From Hansfordia pulvinata (lineage: Eukaryota; Ascomycota; Sordariomycetes; Xylariales): a DNA stretch of 64,000 nucleotides. A program made the position numbers and the translations under genes. Positions within the stretch are counted from its first letter, which is position 1. Each line of letters begins with the position of its first letter. Below, one piece after another: positions 13,849 to 38,251 of this stretch. The stretch is taken from positions 2,294,001 through 2,358,000 of the forward strand of contig BJKQ01000008.1 of the NCBI GenBank assembly GCA_006538405.1, given 5' to 3'. The notes beneath the pieces were generated by a model. It was given only the letters and a program-made list of their open reading frames with translations. It made no database searches and was not told the origin of the DNA.

Positions 13849-16800
13849 CTACTCGCTCAGAGCCTGCAGAGCTTGCGTCAACGAGACTATTCGAAGACTG
13901 CGGCCCCGCTTCAGGCCGACACCGGTCCCGGGTGGGTTCATCACCGTGGGGCTGTCGGCATCCCGCCACTTGCGGAACACGCTCTTCAGGTCCCGGGGGA
14001 TGCCTTCCAACACCACCGTGGAGATGGGGACGAACGGCCTGTCCTCCATCCCCGCAGCAAGGATCGCGTACTCTTGCGCAAAGTCCAGGGCGTTGTGGAA
14101 CGACGCGTATTGCGCTTGGGCCTCGGCGCCAACCACGACATACATCTCGAAGAAGGCGTCCAGTATGTAGATGCCGGCGGGCTGGAGATCAGCCTGCGAG
14201 AAAGGCGACAGCTCAACAATCTGGAAATGCCGGTTAGTCACACTGCCACGAGAACGGGCTTCAACCTGCGCTCACCTGCTGCTTGGAACCGGCGTCCGAC
14301 CGGAACAACCTGCCGCAATATTTGTCGTAGTTCGGCTTCAGTCGCCAGTGGTCGGCAGATCCCCTCTTGAGGCCATTGTCAAACAAGCTCCAGAAGTGCT
14401 CGGGCTCGCAGTCGTCATCCATCTCCTCCAGCTCGCCGGTGAGTGCATAGTCCATACCAATGAGACGCGCGCAGCTCAGCTCAACCACGCCGCTGCCCTT
14501 GCCCTTCCACAGGTAGCATTTGCCAGTCTGCGTGATCAGGTACGGGAATCCCGAGCAGAGCGAGGACGGCGTGAAATCGACCTCGTCAAAGACAACGTGG
14601 CCGTGGTATCTCCGGCCGCAAATCATGTGCGGAGCCAGCGAGTCGTACTTGTTGCCAGACCCCCTCTGCACGATGATAACGCCGCCGAGGGCTTGGATGA
14701 ACTCGGGCGTCTCCTTCCCCTGGCGCAGGTGGACTGCCTTGCCACCCACGGCCTTGGCCTCTCTGGCGACGAATATGGATGCGTCGTCCACGGTCGACTG
14801 CGGAACCTCGTCTCCAGCCCACAAATACACCTCTGTGTTGCGCCTGCCTATGACGTCGCTGAAGTTGTGCGTGCAGAGGTACATCTCGCGGTCGAACAGT
14901 GAGCGCTCCCGGTGCGAGGGCACTGGCTGTTTCTTGCCATCGGCCGAGAACTGGAAAAGCTGCGCGCTGATGGTCTGGATCTTGCGCGCTTCCATCGATT
15001 GTCTGTTCATCAACAGCTCGGCGGGATCCACTTTGTAGTTGCGGGCTGGCCGTTCGGTTCCAAAGAACTCCTTAAGAGTACTCGATACGGTCGCTTCCTG
15101 CTTGGCGGGGCTCCGCGCCGGGGACGGGGCAGACGTGAGGGGCGACGCGACAGCCGGCTGGGGCAGAGGCCTCGATTCACGCTTGGGCTCAAGGGGAAGA
15201 GGGCGCATGGGGGTCTTCAGAGGCTCGGGGCTCGATACTGGAGGCAATGGCCGGGGCTCAGACTCTCGGGAGTCGCGGGCCGGCTCAGGAGCTGGGTTCG
15301 GCAACGACTTGTTCACATCGATGGAGGGCTTCTTTCCGAGTGACAGGGGCTTCGGCTCGGGCAGGGGCCTCGAGGTCCGTTTCGGAGGCGACGGCAGCGG
15401 CCGCGCACCCGCTGGCTTGTCCGCATTGGCTTTGGGCTCTGCCGTGGGTGTGGACGGAAGAGTGCGTTCGGGGCCGGCCGATCCCTTTTCGTTTGCGTCT
15501 GTCGTCTTGGGACTTTCTGGCTTAGATTCGTCAAGGAACCTCGACACGCGGTTCAAGTTGAGCTTCCTGGGAGAGACAGCCTGAGCGGGCTCCTCGGGCT
15601 CCTTCGTAGATGACTCTGATTGTCTCTGTGTGACGAATGCAGCCACTTGATCGTGAATCTTGGGCTCGGGCGGCGGTGTCGTTTCACGTTGTGTGGGCTC
15701 ACTCGACGAGCTGCCAGCCCCATTCGCGGCGGCTTCCTTCGTACTGAACTCTGCTGGAGACTCGGGCAGCGGTTCTTTCTTCGCCGCGGCATTGACCGGA
15801 GCTTGTTTCACCGGGCTCTGGCCACGTGCAGCACTGGGAGCATTGCGCTTGGGTCCACGGGCGCGACCTTTCGTCATGTGCGTCAATTTGGGTCCCGACC
15901 CAGACTCGTTGTCGTTAACCGCGGCAGGAGGGTCTTCTGACTTGTTGTTGGCCGAGCCGCCAGACGAACCCGAGGCCATGGGAGGAGGGCCTCGAGCGAG
16001 CATGCCTGCGAGGGCAGGATTGAAACGATTCGCCAGCGAGCCCCCAATCTTGCCCTGTAGCCGGCCCGGAGCACTGGGTTCCTTCTGGGAAGGGGGCGGC
16101 GCCGCGGCCGCTTCTTTTGAGGCCGCGATATCATCCACAGGCGAATTCTCGGCGGGCCTTGCAACCTTTTGTTCCGCCTCAGGTACAGAGTCGCGTTTCT
16201 CATCCCTGTTTGGCTGCCGGCTCAACCCGACGCGAGACCCTTGAACATAGTCGGTCCTTGTGAATGTGCTGAGCGGTCTGGGCTCTGAAGGCTGGCTGCC
16301 CCCGGCAGCAGCTTCACGTTTTCCAGGCCCTGTTCGCTGCATCTCCAGGCGCTTAGCAAGGCCCTCCGGAACGGGTTGTTCGCTAGCACTGCTGTTAGTG
16401 CGGGAAACGCCTCGCCCGTCAGTCTTTGCCTGTTGAAAGGCTTGCCGTTTGGCCAAGATGGCATCCTTGAACTCGTCTTTGCGCTCGGACTTCTGCGGGC
16501 CTCCAGTCAAGTTGAGGGCAGCCTTGCCCTAGTGATATTATCCTTCAGCTCGTCCGGCGCTTTGTAGTTCTGAGTGGTGGTTCGGCGCAGGTTTCCGAAT
16601 ACGTTCTTGAACTCGGGGTCCTGGCCCCCCGTTGACGATGTGCTCGGGGCTTGGCGATGCTTCAGACCGGCTCTGAAATCCATCTTGGCGGGAACCTGAG
16701 GCTTGGGCTTGACGTCGGCGCTCGTCTCGAAACCTGTCGGCGACGACTCTTTGGGGCTGTGCTTTTCGGTAGCTGTCGGCTTCGGCTGGTCCTCAAAGAT

Positions 16801-19241
16801 AGAGGCTGCACTCTGCAGCGTATTGGGCGAAGTACGTGCCGAGCTGCGCACACTGCTGTACCCGGGTCGATCGCTGGAGTTGGGCTGCGAGGCAGCGCCA
16901 TGAATATCGGCAGAAGTGGGCGGCTTCGACGCATTGCCCGGGGCGGTTGATCTCATAAGACCACCAATGCTGACTTGGTGTTTATGGCCGATCGTAGGAG
17001 ATCGCTTTCGATCGCTGTCTGGGTTGGCGGCTTTCTGGGCTTTTGCTTTCTGCAACTCGGCCATCCATGCAGGCTGGTTCGAGGTGGCAGGGGAAGGCTT
17101 GGGCTTGGGCGAATCCGGCTTGTTCAGGGCCGACTCGAGCCAGCTTGACTTGGTCGGACTCCAGCGCCGGGGGTCCATGGTCTTGGAGGGGCTGGCAGGA
17201 GGTGACGTTTTTTCGACGGGGTGGGTTTGCGGCTCAGAGGGCTCCGTATCAATCTTGAGCGCATTGTCAATTCTTGCGGAGATCAAGTCACCGTCATCGC
17301 CAGGTGCGCCAGGGTGCGGGAGAGATTCGGATGAAATATCCCGCATCATGCTCGTGGGCCTCGAACGTGATCCCACGTCGCCTTGGGGTGGCCCGGCCTG
17401 ACTATTGCGATTGGAGACGGCCGAGTCGGCACGCTGCAGGGCTGGCGGGGATTTGACACTCCATCTCTTGTTGACGCTGTCAGACCGTTTCATCATGGCA
17501 CTCTGGACGAAGCCGCCCATGCCCTTTGTGGGCGAAGATGGCCTTTCGGATCGAGAAGGCGATGTCCGACCTGAAGGTGGTGACATTAGACCCCTGTGTT
17601 CCGAGCTTGTCTCATCGTTGGTCTGGGGTGTTGCAGTGGGCGGGTCCAGGGCTGGCGGGGACGCCAACTTGGCACGAGGCGTCGAAGTGCCGGCCCCCGC
17701 GGAATCGGGCGAAGTGACACGCGACATTCCTGGCAACTGCGCCCTCATCGCCGACATGTCAGAACGGTGATCATCCTCGACCTGGTTCTTCCTGTATGCG
17801 GCCGACACGGCGCCGCGATCCGCGGTTTGCCGGAACCACGTGGGGTCTTTTCCAGCCAGGGCGGCCGCGATCTGATCGCGGGACATGGATTCGGAGGCGG
17901 AGGCAGACGCGGGCTCTGTAGGTGAAGTGGTTGAGCGGGCAGCCGCGTTCTCGGCAGCGACCATGGAAAGGGGCCTGCTGCGGGACCGGTCGGAGGCTTG
18001 TGAGTTTGGACGTCTCTGCCAGGACAGGCCTCTGGCAACCGAGTCGCTTCGCGTGGGAGAAGTCTGGGCGCCTGATTTTCGGCCGGAATCAGCGTCAAAG
18101 GGTGAGTGGTTCTCTTTCGAGGGAGAGGTCGAGGCTAGCCGGGGGCCGCCATTGGTTCGGACGCCGTCGGAGGGGATTGAGGGTCGGCGGCGGGAGGGTC
18201 AAGAACGGGCGAGGAATCGAGGTTGAGACGGTCGGAGGAACCGCGAGTGTTGGTGCGGGGGCGCTGCGTTGAGGGAGGCGGCGTGTTGGCAGGGGAGGAC
18301 TTCTGTGGCGAGATGGACCTGGCGCGTTCTGACGCGACGGGATGTCAATGGGGCGATTCTCAAAGAGGACTGCCACGAGAGTGGCGGAAACCCGCGAACA
18401 AGGGTATATGCGCGTGCGAGATCGGATGGGGCAAATCAACTCAATCTTCAAGGAGCGAGAAGTGAACCTGCGAGAGGACGAATCGTGTGAAAGGCAAGGA
18501 GCGTAGGCGGGATGTGGGGGCAGGGGCGATGAGGTTATCTTGAGAAATAACGCGACAAAGTATGCACATCTCCAGGCACGAGAAAATGACTGCCACGCCA
18601 ACCGCCTGGGCAATGGCCTCGGAGCGAAGGTAGATGCGTGTACGCGTAATTTCCTGGTGCAGCGGGAAAAGGACAAGGGAAATTTTGATCAAGTGCGCGC
18701 GTAAACAAGAGACACTTCGACCATCCGCGCGCCTGTGTGCCTCGCGCTATTGAGGGGCGTGCAGGCGGGCGGGTCCCGAGGCTGCCTTGTGCGATGGACG
18801 TGCGCGAGCCGGATGAAGAAATGGTTCGTCGACCTAGTCGAGAGCTGTACCAAATTTTCGAATGATCTCGGACGATAAAAACACAATAAAGGTGCGTAAA
18901 ATCCGCAGTCGGCACGCTGAGGGCGGCCGGGCAGAAAAAGCAGTCGAGAGGAGGGGCATTGGGGGGAACGGGCAGGAGGGGGGCAACTAGCGAGAGCCCA
19001 AAACAAATAACACAGGCACATATTGAATGGGTGTCGTGGATGGCAACGCAATTCGAACACGGCAAAACAATAAGACAGCGCCGCGGGCAAGGGAGGAAAT
19101 GGAGCCCAGCTTACCTGCGCGCCTAGCTTGACGCTCCTTCTTCTCTTGCAGAATCTTTTCTTCGAGTCCGCGCGAGTCCTCGTCTGCGCGGCGGCTGTCG
19201 AGGCCTTTGACCTCCTCGAGGAAGCGGCTGACTTCGGACAT
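13849..19241 (-). CDS. DUF4045 / gelsolin-repeat actin-binding protein (two single-base frame breaks)
   Basis: Exons 19241-19115, 18328-14276 and 14220-13849. The first intron is unusually long (786 nt). The N-terminus (MSEVSRFLEEVKGLD, then EEKILQEKKERQARRAE and RARSISPQKSS across the splice) is the signature of fungal DUF4045. The middle is a very long Pro/Ser/Lys-rich disordered region. The last roughly 370 residues contain gelsolin/villin-type repeats (YLWAGDEVP, LYLCTH-like and YLWKGKGSG strands) and a final domain ending in GRSLRIVSLTQAL. It should bind or sever actin filaments in the cytoplasm. The frame breaks at GGGGG 18141-18145 and at CCC 16527-16529. One extra base at each restores continuous family-like sequence and a total of 1517 codons, so I regard both as sequence errors. 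A GGC repeat sits just upstream of the ATG. Confidence 0.85.
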
Positions 19242-34435: not shown

Positions 34436-35523
34436 TCAGTACAGGAACAGCCGTGCCTTGGCCTCGTCCACGACCCACGCGAGGCCCTCGCCGAGGTTCT
34501 GCCCCGTCATGGCGCTGCACCGCAGCACGTGCCAGCGGTGCGTCCGGATGCCCTCGAGCCCTAGGCCCTGCAGCATCTCGGCCTCGTCCATGCACCCCTC
34601 CACATCCGTCTTGTTGGCGAGCACCAGCAGGCTGGCTCCGGAAAGGCGCTGTTTGCGATTCCCAGCGGCGGGGGTTGGGGGTGGTGTCAGCTCTGCTCGC
34701 TCGGGTTCTCGTTTTTTTTTTCTCTCTCCTTCTCGGGTGTAAAGTGACGACCAAGATTATAGAGCGGGGAAAGACGGGACATGATAAGAATCGTAGGTGG
34801 AAACGGGGGTTGGGACGGCGGCGGCAGCTCGAAAAGCAGACTTACCTCCTCCTGGAGCAGCCCGTGCAGCTCGGCGCGGCAGTCCTCGATGCGCAGCCGA
34901 TCCGTCGCGTCGACGACCCAGATGAGCGCGTCCGTCTTCTCAAAGTAGTTCCTCCAGTACGAGCGCAGCGTCTTCTGGCCGCCCACATCCCCTGCGGAAC
35001 CACCGGGCGCGCCACGCCCATCCTCGTCAGCCCCTCCTCACCTCGCCTTCACGTCGCGCCGGGATGATGTGCGGCTCCCTCTTACTCACAGATGTTCAAC
35101 TTGTATCTGCACACGCACACACACAAGGCGCCAAAGCGAGCGGATCGTCAGCGTAATGGCCCTCAGACGGAAGGGAAAGAATGGAAACCGGGAAGGGGAA
35201 GCAGAAGGCCACCGCAACTCACCCCTCGTAGTCAATAGTCTTGATGATGAAGCCCAGCGTAGGGCTGACGGTGTGGACGTCCTCGTCCATGATCTTCTTG
35301 ACAATCGTCGTCTTGCCCGCGTTGTCGAGCCCGCTGCCACCCCGTCAATCAGCTTCCTTCTTCTTTTTTTTTCATATATATATCGTTCTCCGCCGCATCT
35401 CTCTCCTTGGGTGGGGAGGGGGGCTTTGACTATCAGTTAAAAAAAGGAAATGGGTCAGGCGCACAGCATCAGGATCCTCATCTCCTTGTCCTTCAGCCGC
35501 GCCTTTCGCAGAATCGACAGCAT
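34436..35523 (-). CDS. ARL2: ADP-ribosylation factor-like GTPase ARL2 (Alp41/Cin4)
   Basis: Five exons: 35523-35465, 35333-35223, 35106-35090 (a 17-nt microexon), 34991-34846 and 34648-34436; 181 aa, the usual ARL2 size. The N-terminus [18 protein letters not shown] is diagnostic. GTPase motifs are the P-loop GLDNAGKT, switch I SPTLGF, switch II WDVGGQ, the base-recognition motif NKTD (usually NKxD) and CSA. The C-terminus [17 protein letters not shown] is also ARL2-like. No myristoylation Gly2 is present, as expected for ARL2. The protein acts with tubulin-folding cofactor D and the BART-type effector network in tubulin biogenesis. The microexon encodes only YKLNI plus split codons, and introns around it use GTGAGT donors. 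Confidence 0.95.
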
Positions 35524-36069: not shown

Positions 36070-38251
36070 TCAGGCGCTGGTCCTTCGCGCTCTTTTTTTG
36101 TCGCTCTTTTTGGATCTCCAGTACTCCAATGCCTTGATCTGATTGACGTCAGTCTCCCTTGCGAACTCGTCGACGTGCACTTTGCCAGCTGAAAGATCCA
36201 GCAGATGCTGTTCGAACGGACCCAGCGGTTCCTCCGCCATCACACAATCTGGAGGTGCGTTCCCTGCCGGCCCAATATAATACCACTCCCAGCGCGACCC
36301 CATCTTCTCTGCCTCTCCAGCCGCGTTGGTCGTCTCAGCCCCTTCTCCGCCAGCAGTCGCAGCGCTTGTTTCGTTATGGGCTTCTGGCGGACCAGTCTCG
36401 CCAAGTTGTACAGGCGCCAATGCTCGCGACCCATCGGTGGCTTCTCCCGAAGCCGCAGCGTTTCCCCCAGCTGCGTCGACATAGCTCACTTGTCGCAGCC
36501 GCCAGTGGCGCAGTAAGGGTGCGCATCGCCAAATGCCCGTGTCGTTGAGGGCCAGTCCCTCGCATGCAAGGCGGACTCTCACGCTGCTGTGAATATTTTC
36601 ATTGGTGTTTTCAAGAAATGCTTTGATGCGTCGCCCGGTGTCCGGGCTGATCTTCTTGTACAGGCCTGGAGAGCGAGTTGCTGCCCCCACGAACTTAAAT
36701 GGGCTGTTGACCGATTCAATCTTGTGCAATGACCATGGTCGGATGGGCTTGTTCTCCTGATAGATCCGGCCCACTGCCCAGTGCGACAACCTTCTCAGGA
36801 CATCAGGTGGCGAGCAACAGCAGCCCGGCGGGCACATCTTGATCTTCCCCTTGGTTTTTGTCTTTTGGTAGTAGGACACATTTGCCTGGTACAACTTGTC
36901 GATGGAGTGGTCCACAAACTCAACTCCGATGGAAGCAAGCTGATCCATCATCCCTGCTCAAAATCAGCTGCTGGCCGATACGTCTAGTACCTGAAGGAAA
37001 GAGAGATCGGTTTCATTTCTCCCATTTATGCGGCAGGTTGACTCACAAGCCAAAGCGATGTCGGCTACTCCCTGGTCGGCCAAGCCGCCGCCCACGTTGC
37101 CATGGCTTCCGGGGAACCACACCTGACGCAGATTGGTCGCATCCTTGTTTTCTGGGTGTCTCTCCCAGAGCGTTGGGCTGAACGGCCCTCGGGTCTCGTC
37201 CAGTGCGAGTGCGTGGAATGCGTTTTCGATCTGGGCGCACAGGTTCGTGTTGTAGAACTTGAATTTTTGAGACTGTCAGCTTCGGGCGGTCTCGTGTGAT
37301 CGGGGAAACCGGAGACTTATTCTTTGACGCTGCGCTTGATCCCAAGGCCTGAGAGAAACTGGTTGTCCGGCACTCCGAGGCTACCAACCGTGTCCTAAAC
37401 AGCTGTTGTTGTCAATAAGGAATCAAAAGCCGGTCTGAGGATGGCACGAACCAACAGCTTTGACGTTGATCCAGTCGCCGTTACCCTGCTTCTGGCGGAC
37501 GCGAGCAAACCCGCCCTGGGCCGTGTCAGCAGGAGCAACACATCCTTGATGGTGACCATTACCTCGACAAGTCTCCTCCGGTACTCTTCTTTTGCGCCCA
37601 TGCCCCGAGGCTTGTTCGAGAAAGGCAGGTCGGGGAATTGGTCCTTGTACTTTTCGTTCATCCAGTTCTGCATGTCTTTGAAGACTGGGTAGAAATGATC
37701 CATGCCCTCGCGGGTCAGCAGGCCCAGGTCGGACACCATGCCAGCCACCGCCCGGGCCGTGTAGGCGCCGCGGCTGAAGCCCAGGAGAATGATTTCGTCT
37801 CCATCGACGTAGTTGGCGCACAGGAAAGCATAAGCCTCCCGAATATTCTACGACAGGTTCCTCGCGTCAGCTTTCCGGGTCGGTCACTGCCCGCGCTTGC
37901 ATCGCCGCAACGAACCTCGGCTATCCCGATCCCGAAGGCACCTCCGAGGATCTTGTCGAGCGCGTTGGAGTTCGATCCAACACCGGCGTGGTAGTAGATG
38001 ATCTGAAATGTGCCATCCGAGCACTCTCTCTTGAAACACCGCGAGATGCGGGTAACGTTGGACGGGATCTGTATTGATGGCAGTTTATTGGTCGAGGAAG
38101 GCTTCACGTAGCCGTTGTCGCTGCAGGGCTGTCAGTCGAAGAACCCACTCGATCTCTTGGCCGCACGCTGTCCTTACGAGTTCTGCTAGGTTCCATCGCA
38201 GCAGACAATGATGCGCTTCTTCTGGGCCGCGGAGAACCAGTGCGATGCCAT
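36070..38251 (-). pseudogene. DUF2235 (Tle1-like) alpha/beta hydrolase with premature TAG at a conserved Trp
   Basis: Seven family-like exons: 38251-38178, 38120-37916, 37847-37563, 37515-37452, 37402-37320, 37272-37047 and 36953-36070; about 606 codons. They carry KKRIIVCCDGT, YYHAGVG, the nucleophile elbow LLGFSRGAYTAR, DTVGSLG, FYNTNLCAQIENAFHALALDE, and WFPGSHGNVGGG. DUF2235 proteins are Ser-His-Asp hydrolases related to bacterial Tle1 phospholipases. Lesions are as follows. Codon 22 is TAG (38188-38186) where the family has the Trp of CDGTW. A second TAG (37397-37395) sits at the Trp of GVWDTVGSLG if the upstream acceptor is used. After exon 5 the donor lacks its G (GAA/TAAGTC), leaving an in-frame TAA. 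The rest of the frame is intact over 600 codons, so any decay is recent. RNA editing of the TAG codons is an alternative. Confidence 0.75.

What the first reader, a model, noticed from the sequence alone, without database searches (positions are those of the whole stretch)
38178..38251. TAG in place of the conserved Trp of CDGTW in a DUF2235 gene: candidate A-to-I edited stop
Codon 22 is TAG (38188-38186) exactly where DUF2235 proteins have Trp, while the coding frame upstream and for hundreds of codons downstream remains intact. In Fusarium, Neurospora and Sordaria, sexual-stage A-to-I editing turns UAG into a Trp codon in many such apparent pseudogenes, with strong preference for U at -1 (present here) and for hairpin loops. 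On the coding strand TCTGC (38205-38201) can pair with GCAGA (38186-38182), placing the target A as the last base of a 14-nt loop. A simple C-to-T mutation on the template strand in a CpA context (RIP-like) would give the same base.
Basis: partly seen in the sequence, partly recalled or inferred. Interest (0 to 1): 0.75.

Follow-up and report, generated by a model that had tools for sequence, protein, structure and literature searches.

The report
Fungal gene with two correctable stops
A conserved gene in a fungus of the order Xylariales carries stop codons at two places where its relatives have the amino acid tryptophan, and the likeliest reading, still untested, is that the fungus corrects both in the RNA message rather than in the DNA.

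Summary
In detail: minus-strand exon 1 (38251-38178) reads CDGT*QNS, with TAG at 38188-38186 where 114 of 114 homologue models that cover the site have Trp. Otherwise the gene looks sound: 135 of 137 strongly conserved columns kept, no frameshift, no second close copy found, and an ARF-like gene next door as in Xylariales relatives. The source is a Xylariales fungus encoding Tad2- and Tad3-like proteins and a DUF726 protein with the 'MV' signature of the editing activator Ame1. Best explanation (0.6): both UAGs are read as Trp after A-to-I editing. Main rival (0.3): a young pseudogene. The proposed hairpin is not robust, and RIP is not supported. Intron 5 is inferred to be a conserved AT-AC intron but ends AT...AA here: a tolerated variant or a third lesion. 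No RNA and no DNA of a related species could be examined.

The parts
38178..38251 (-). exon 1 of the DUF2235 (PF09994) gene, ATG at 38251
   Evidence: GTAAGG donor at 38177
38186..38188 (-). in-frame TAG 1 (codon 22), in place of Trp of CDGTW
   Evidence: Trp in 114 of 114 models that cover it
37916..38120 (-). exon 2
   Evidence: PF09994 match 2.8e-9 in this frame
37563..37847 (-). exon 3, with the GFSRG nucleophile-elbow-like motif
   Evidence: PF09994 match 2.6e-26; motif read
37452..37515 (-). exon 4
   Evidence: aligned
37321..37402 (-). exon 5
   Evidence: aligned
37395..37397 (-). in-frame TAG 2 (codon 212), in place of Trp of (G/A)VWDTVG
   Evidence: Trp in 97 of 105
37265..37320 (-). 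intron 5, inferred AT-AC class; begins ATAAGT, ends AA here
   Evidence: no cDNA seen
37047..37264 (-). exon 6
   Evidence: PF09994 match 5.4e-23 in this frame
36070..36953 (-). exon 7 with the final TGA stop
34436..35436 (-). neighbouring ARF-like GTPase gene (approximate extent), the neighbour expected from Xylariales models
   Evidence: PF00025 match in the frame 34687-35037; first exon read; fused gene models P0052, P0247

Best explanation
This is the single-copy orthologue of a conserved sordariomycete DUF2235 (PF09994) alpha/beta-hydrolase-like gene whose reading frame is interrupted by two UAG codons, each in place of a conserved Trp codon. During sexual development the Tad2-Tad3 deaminase with its activator Ame1 would deaminate the middle A of both UAGs; UIG is read as UGG (Trp), and full-length protein appears only then. 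Unedited message gives a 21-residue peptide. Shown: both TAGs, their match to conserved Trp positions, the otherwise conserved protein, the shared neighbour, and genes for Ame1-, Tad2- and Tad3-like proteins. Inferred: that the RNA is edited, at what stage, and that the product matters in sexual development.
For: Both stops are TAG, and both sit at conserved Trp columns (114 of 114; 97 of 105), while 135 of 137 columns conserved at 97% or more are kept. TGG-to-TAG is 6 to 18% of the single-base routes to a stop in the other codons, so the second hit is a modestly improbable coincidence. Both sites have U at -1, G at +1 and A at +3, the stated preferences (PMC11156358). One DUF726 gene of the genome has MV at the site that PMC11087585 shows to be essential in Ame1, and a paralogue has the ancestral KN. 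Tad2- and Tad3-like genes are present. F. graminearum has about 70 genes with UAG-to-UGG correction, one of them with two tandem UAGs (PMC11156358, PMC4817773). No second copy was found and the ARF-like neighbour matches relatives.
Against: No RNA. Conservation alone does not exclude a recent loss: at most one conserved missense before another neutral nonsense has a chance of 0.33-0.37. Against 50 relatives the window ranks 1st or 2nd of 51 for departures from conserved residues, though 5th, 6th and 9th for radical ones. Intron 5 ends AA where relatives are inferred to have AC. No hairpin preference: hairpin loops are as common for any UA in this message (21 of 35 in 31-nt windows) as for the two sites. 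No other TAG at a Trp was found in 134 WD40 rows or 141 kinase rows of the genome, so dependence on such correction is not otherwise shown here.
Confidence: 0.6

Rival explanations
1. A young pseudogene: the gene lost its function recently in this lineage and picked up two G-to-A nonsense changes, and perhaps a broken intron-5 acceptor, by ordinary mutation. No full-length protein is made at any stage.
For: Two stops, plus an AA intron end where relatives are inferred to have AC. Slightly raised departures from conserved residues. No Monosporascus or Eutypa protein of this family among the 120 listed hits or, although Monosporascus leads the Ame1 list, which could mean loss in neighbouring lineages.
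Against: Both stops are TAG at conserved Trp codons, no frameshift is seen, and 135 of 137 conserved columns are kept. RIP, which would favour TGG-to-TAG, is not supported: no second copy found; TpA/ApT 0.44 in the gene against 0.64 in the window.
Confidence: 0.3
2. The stops are avoided by splicing rather than editing, for instance at TAG 2, where TTTAG|GA itself looks like an acceptor; the product would lack the conserved Trp segment.
For: TAG 2 lies five bases inside exon 5, and a weak phase-0 donor (GTTGGT) upstream would give an in-frame deletion (read). A PSC gene of F. graminearum, FgBUD14, shows both editing and alternative splicing (PMC11156358).
Against: It cannot remove TAG 1, and it would delete residues conserved across the family.
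Confidence: 0.06
3. Sequencing or assembly error at both sites.
For: Reads were not available for checking.
Against: Two independent G-to-A errors, both at conserved Trp codons, are unlikely. The assembly is 46.8 Mb in 63 contigs, and pieces of the two neighbouring genes match their families without stops.
Confidence: 0.03

Closest known systems
PUK1 and other premature-stop-correction (PSC) genes of Fusarium graminearum (PMC4817773, passages; PMC11156358, parts 1-2)
   Same: In-frame UAG in a conserved domain where relatives have UGG; PUK1 too has two UAG codons; sexual-stage editing restores Trp there.
   Different: PUK1's UAGs are adjacent and its editing is measured; here they lie 190 codons apart, the gene family is different, and no RNA has been seen.
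CHE1 of F. graminearum and the OLD-ZAO genes of Neurospora (PMC11169179, PMC12754623; passages)
   Same: A premature UAG corrected by A-to-I editing; models over such sites are often wrong.
   Different: Edited in hyphae or on virus infection, and zinc-finger regulators rather than a hydrolase-like protein.
Fungal PF09994 (DUF2235) proteins of Xylariales, such as P0001-P0007
   Same: Same domain and conserved columns; 56-58% identity over 95-98% of the query.
   Different: These models encode Trp at both sites.

Membership tests
PSC-edited fungal genes | in-frame UAG where orthologues have a conserved Trp | tested here: met
   two sites; 114 of 114 and 97 of 105
PSC-edited fungal genes | U at -1, A or G at +1 and +3 | tested here: met
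   CCUAGCA and UUUAGGA; preference from PMC11156358; U at -1 and G at +1 follow from the codon itself
PSC-edited fungal genes | edited A in a stable hairpin loop (a preference, not a rule: 62.4% of sites in PMC4817773) | tested here: inconclusive
   site 1 paired in 4 of 5 window sizes; site 2 unpaired in 5 of 5, in a hairpin loop in 2; not stabler than shuffles
PSC-edited fungal genes | frame beyond the stop under constraint | tested here: inconclusive
   135 of 137 conserved columns kept, but a recent loss could look the same and departures rank high
PSC-edited fungal genes | A-to-G change in RNA, stage-specific | not testable with these tools
   no RNA data on hand
PSC-edited fungal genes | stop shared with close relatives | not testable with these tools
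   no DNA of a related fungus on hand; the Diatrype stigma model P0118 lacks both segments, which decides nothing
Tad2-Tad3-Ame1 editing system in the host | DUF726 protein with MV at the Tad3-contact site | tested here: met
   L011 NPWIVGMVRAE; MV in 96 of 123 aligned rows, L011 included
Tad2-Tad3-Ame1 editing system in the host | Tad2 and Tad3 genes | tested here: met
   L045 and L048 by deaminase-domain search and motifs that I recalled; orthology not tested by a tree
PF09994 (DUF2235) | match above the curated cut-off | tested here: met
   three exon frames at 37.1, 93.1 and 82.2 bits, cut-off 27
RIP-mutated repeat | a second similar copy and raised TpA | tested here: not met
   one match only for an 852-base stretch; TpA/ApT 0.44 against 0.64 in the window
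AT-AC intron (intron 5) | AT at the 5' end and AC at the 3' end | tested here: inconclusive
   AT seen; AC only inferred for relatives, from T in 17 of 19 aberrant models; the window ends AA

The most novel reading that the evidence does not exclude
A doubly locked gene: a conserved hydrolase-like gene, plainly encoded in other Sordariomycetes, that in this lineage needs two separate UAG-to-UIG edits and the removal of a rare AT-class intron ending AA before any full-length protein appears, so that its expression is confined to the fruiting body.
Probability: 0.35. Interest if true: 0.65.

Novelty: new member of a known kind. Interest (0 to 1): 0.5.

Why it matters
[quoted passage not shown] A gene with two stops that editing could correct gives a sharp, cheap test in Xylariales, for which the one search here listed a single paper, on Fusarium. 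It also shows how such genes, and genes with a rare intron class, can escape correct annotation, and raises the question of why a plainly encoded gene would come under stage-specific RNA control in one lineage.

Tried and rejected
Other TAG-at-Trp genes as support: among 134 WD40 rows and 141 kinase rows, nine rows hold a TAG (3 and 6); looked at by eye they are introns or terminal stops. Five DNA-methylase rows hold no stop. The MFS search scored only 9 of 367 candidates, no stops. PUK1 was not identified, and orthology of the Ama1-like and RID-like rows was not tested, so these are not real positive controls. Solved structures: 0 matches for P0001 at E up to 1. Sister species: the Diatrype stigma model P0118 lacks both Trp segments, but many Xylariales models lack the second because of intron 5, so shared TAGs are not shown; the search with P0118 gave two unnamed short proteins, P0241 and P0259, that cover only the part matching exon 7. 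A stop between two long frames near 1412 lies in a canonical intron. RIP: not supported. My first thought that conservation alone would exclude a pseudogene was wrong. A search for AT-AC introns with Neurospora found no paper.

Full report
WHAT IS THERE. The window lies in a 46.8-Mb genome of 63 contigs, C8:2294001-2358000. The gene is on the minus strand; I place seven exons at 38251-38178, 38120-37916, 37847-37563, 37515-37452, 37402-37321, 37264-37047 and 36953-36070, by homology and splice signals, without cDNA. Joined, they give 604 codons with the stop. Codon 22 is TAG (38188-38186) in CDGT*QNS, as reported. Frames of exons 2, 3 and 6 match PF09994.

RELATIVES. A search with X at both stops gave 4401 proteins at E of 0.001 or less among 7995 scored; 120 are listed, fungal in every named case, led by Xylariales at 56-58% identity. 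In an alignment with those 120, 137 columns are at least 97% conserved in 60 or more sequences; the window keeps 135 and departs at Trp22 (Trp in 114 of 114) and at S246C. Trp212 is Trp in 97 of 105. Thirteen of the 120 homologues, picked by me, lose 0 to 4 such columns when tested the same way. Six of the 120 models lack the first Trp segment altogether, and a TAG there would tend to hide a model, so 114 of 114 is a biased sample. With looser thresholds and 50 relatives, the window ranks 1st, 2nd and 2nd of 51 for departures from conserved residues but 5th, 6th and 9th for radical ones; its nearest relative is at 65%, and other isolated lineages look similar. This stands somewhat against the functional reading.

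IS IT THE REAL LOCUS? An 852-base DNA query found only itself, and the other PF09994 rows of the genome belong to a different gene on C18. Downstream lies an ARF-like GTPase gene. The Xylariales model P0247 runs from this family straight into an ARF start much like the one here, and P0052 carries both domains by its Pfam list. I read this as the ancestral neighbourhood.

HOW LIKELY BY CHANCE? Of the single-base routes to a stop in the other codons, TGG-to-TAG is 6 to 18%, depending on transition bias. The first TAG picked the gene, so the fair independent test is the second, at that chance. Conservation adds little: at most one conserved missense before another neutral nonsense has a chance of 0.33-0.37. 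Absence of indels was seen but not modelled. RIP is disfavoured by the single copy and low TpA/ApT, 0.44 in the gene against 0.64 in the window.

THE MACHINERY. In F. graminearum mRNA editing is done by Tad2-Tad3 with Ame1, a DUF726 protein in which MV500-501 is essential and replaced ancestral KN in Sordariomycetes (PMC11087585, passages and section 17). The source genome has four DUF726 genes. L011 reads NPWIVGMVRAE and L009 NPFTLAKNRSE. In an alignment of L011, L009, L008 and the 120 listed homologues of L011, 96 of 123 rows have MV, among them L011, Monosporascus, Neurospora, Sordaria and Colletotrichum. Of the other 27, five named fungi that I recall as Dothideomycetes have KA or KS, and several Xylariales or their kin have near forms such as LV, VI or IV. 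The pair stands 30 and 29 residues before the catalytic Ser here, against 31 and 30 in the paper's numbering, so the match rests on alignment. Tad2- and Tad3-like genes are present, named from recalled motifs. The best hits of L011 are Monosporascus and other Xylariales at 45-53%, so the source is a Xylariales fungus without a close relative in those lists.

RNA STRUCTURE. In spliced RNA, site 1 is in a hairpin loop in the 31-nt window and paired in the four longer ones; site 2 is unpaired in all five, in a hairpin loop in two. For comparison, 21 of 35 UA adenines of the message fall in hairpin loops in 31-nt windows and 16 of 35 in 41-nt windows. With intron 1 kept, site 1 is unpaired in folds no stabler than shuffles; a spliced 41-nt stretch at site 2 has z +0.92. 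Structure does not argue either way.

INTRON 5. Many Sordariomycete models go wrong at one place, between (I)K....E and [YF]x[FW][YH][ND]T (its automatic intact/broken labels, 53 and 64 of 120 with 3 unplaced, are rough). Of 140 homologues, 76 show the motif; the residue before it is E or D in 57, and T in 17 of the other 19. T is what AC plus A gives when the tail of an intron is translated, so I infer a conserved AT-AC intron, whose ATAAGT donor is seen in the window. AT-AC makes up 0.019% of annotated fungal introns (PMC7072748, passages). The window intron ends AA. I recall, from no call, that AT-AA introns exist in other eukaryotes; whether this one is spliced is unknown.

LITERATURE SEEN. 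PMC11156358: parts 1 and 2 of 3. PMC11087585: passages and section 17. PMC11169179, PMC7072748, PMC7306014, PMC4817773 and PMC12754623: passages only. The search for RNA editing, A-to-I and Xylariales listed one paper, on Fusarium (listing only); the search for DUF2235 and fungi listed 14, none of which by title or abstract start concerns editing (listing only). Subscription journals are largely outside the library.

VERDICT. Two correctable stops at conserved Trp codons, in an otherwise sound gene of a genome with an Ame1-type activator, make A-to-I correction the best explanation at 0.6. A young pseudogene at 0.3 remains open, with the AA intron end and the raised departures on its side. RNA from fruiting bodies would decide.

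Noticed in passing
window 37320-37265; homologues P0001-P0120, P0241-P0260: Gene models of this family break at one intron across Sordariomycetes; the pattern (T before the next exon in 17 of 19 aberrant models) points to a conserved AT-AC intron, which ends AA in the window.
   Followed up: partly
P0052 and P0247: Xylariales gene models that join this DUF2235 gene to the neighbouring ARF-like gene, probably annotation fusions of adjacent genes.
   Followed up: no
window 14261-18198, minus strand: A DUF4045 match passes from one frame (16507-18198) into another (14261-16528) at profile position 655; an intron or a frameshift.
   Followed up: no
G000 C5:2274885, C5:2755888, C14:658527, C4:936199: Four DUF726 genes, one with MV and one with KN at the Ame1 signature site.
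   Followed up: partly
hit lists: No Monosporascus or Eutypa protein of the DUF2235 family among the 120 listed or, though Monosporascus leads the Ame1 list; loss, shared stops or poor gene models are all possible.
   Followed up: partly
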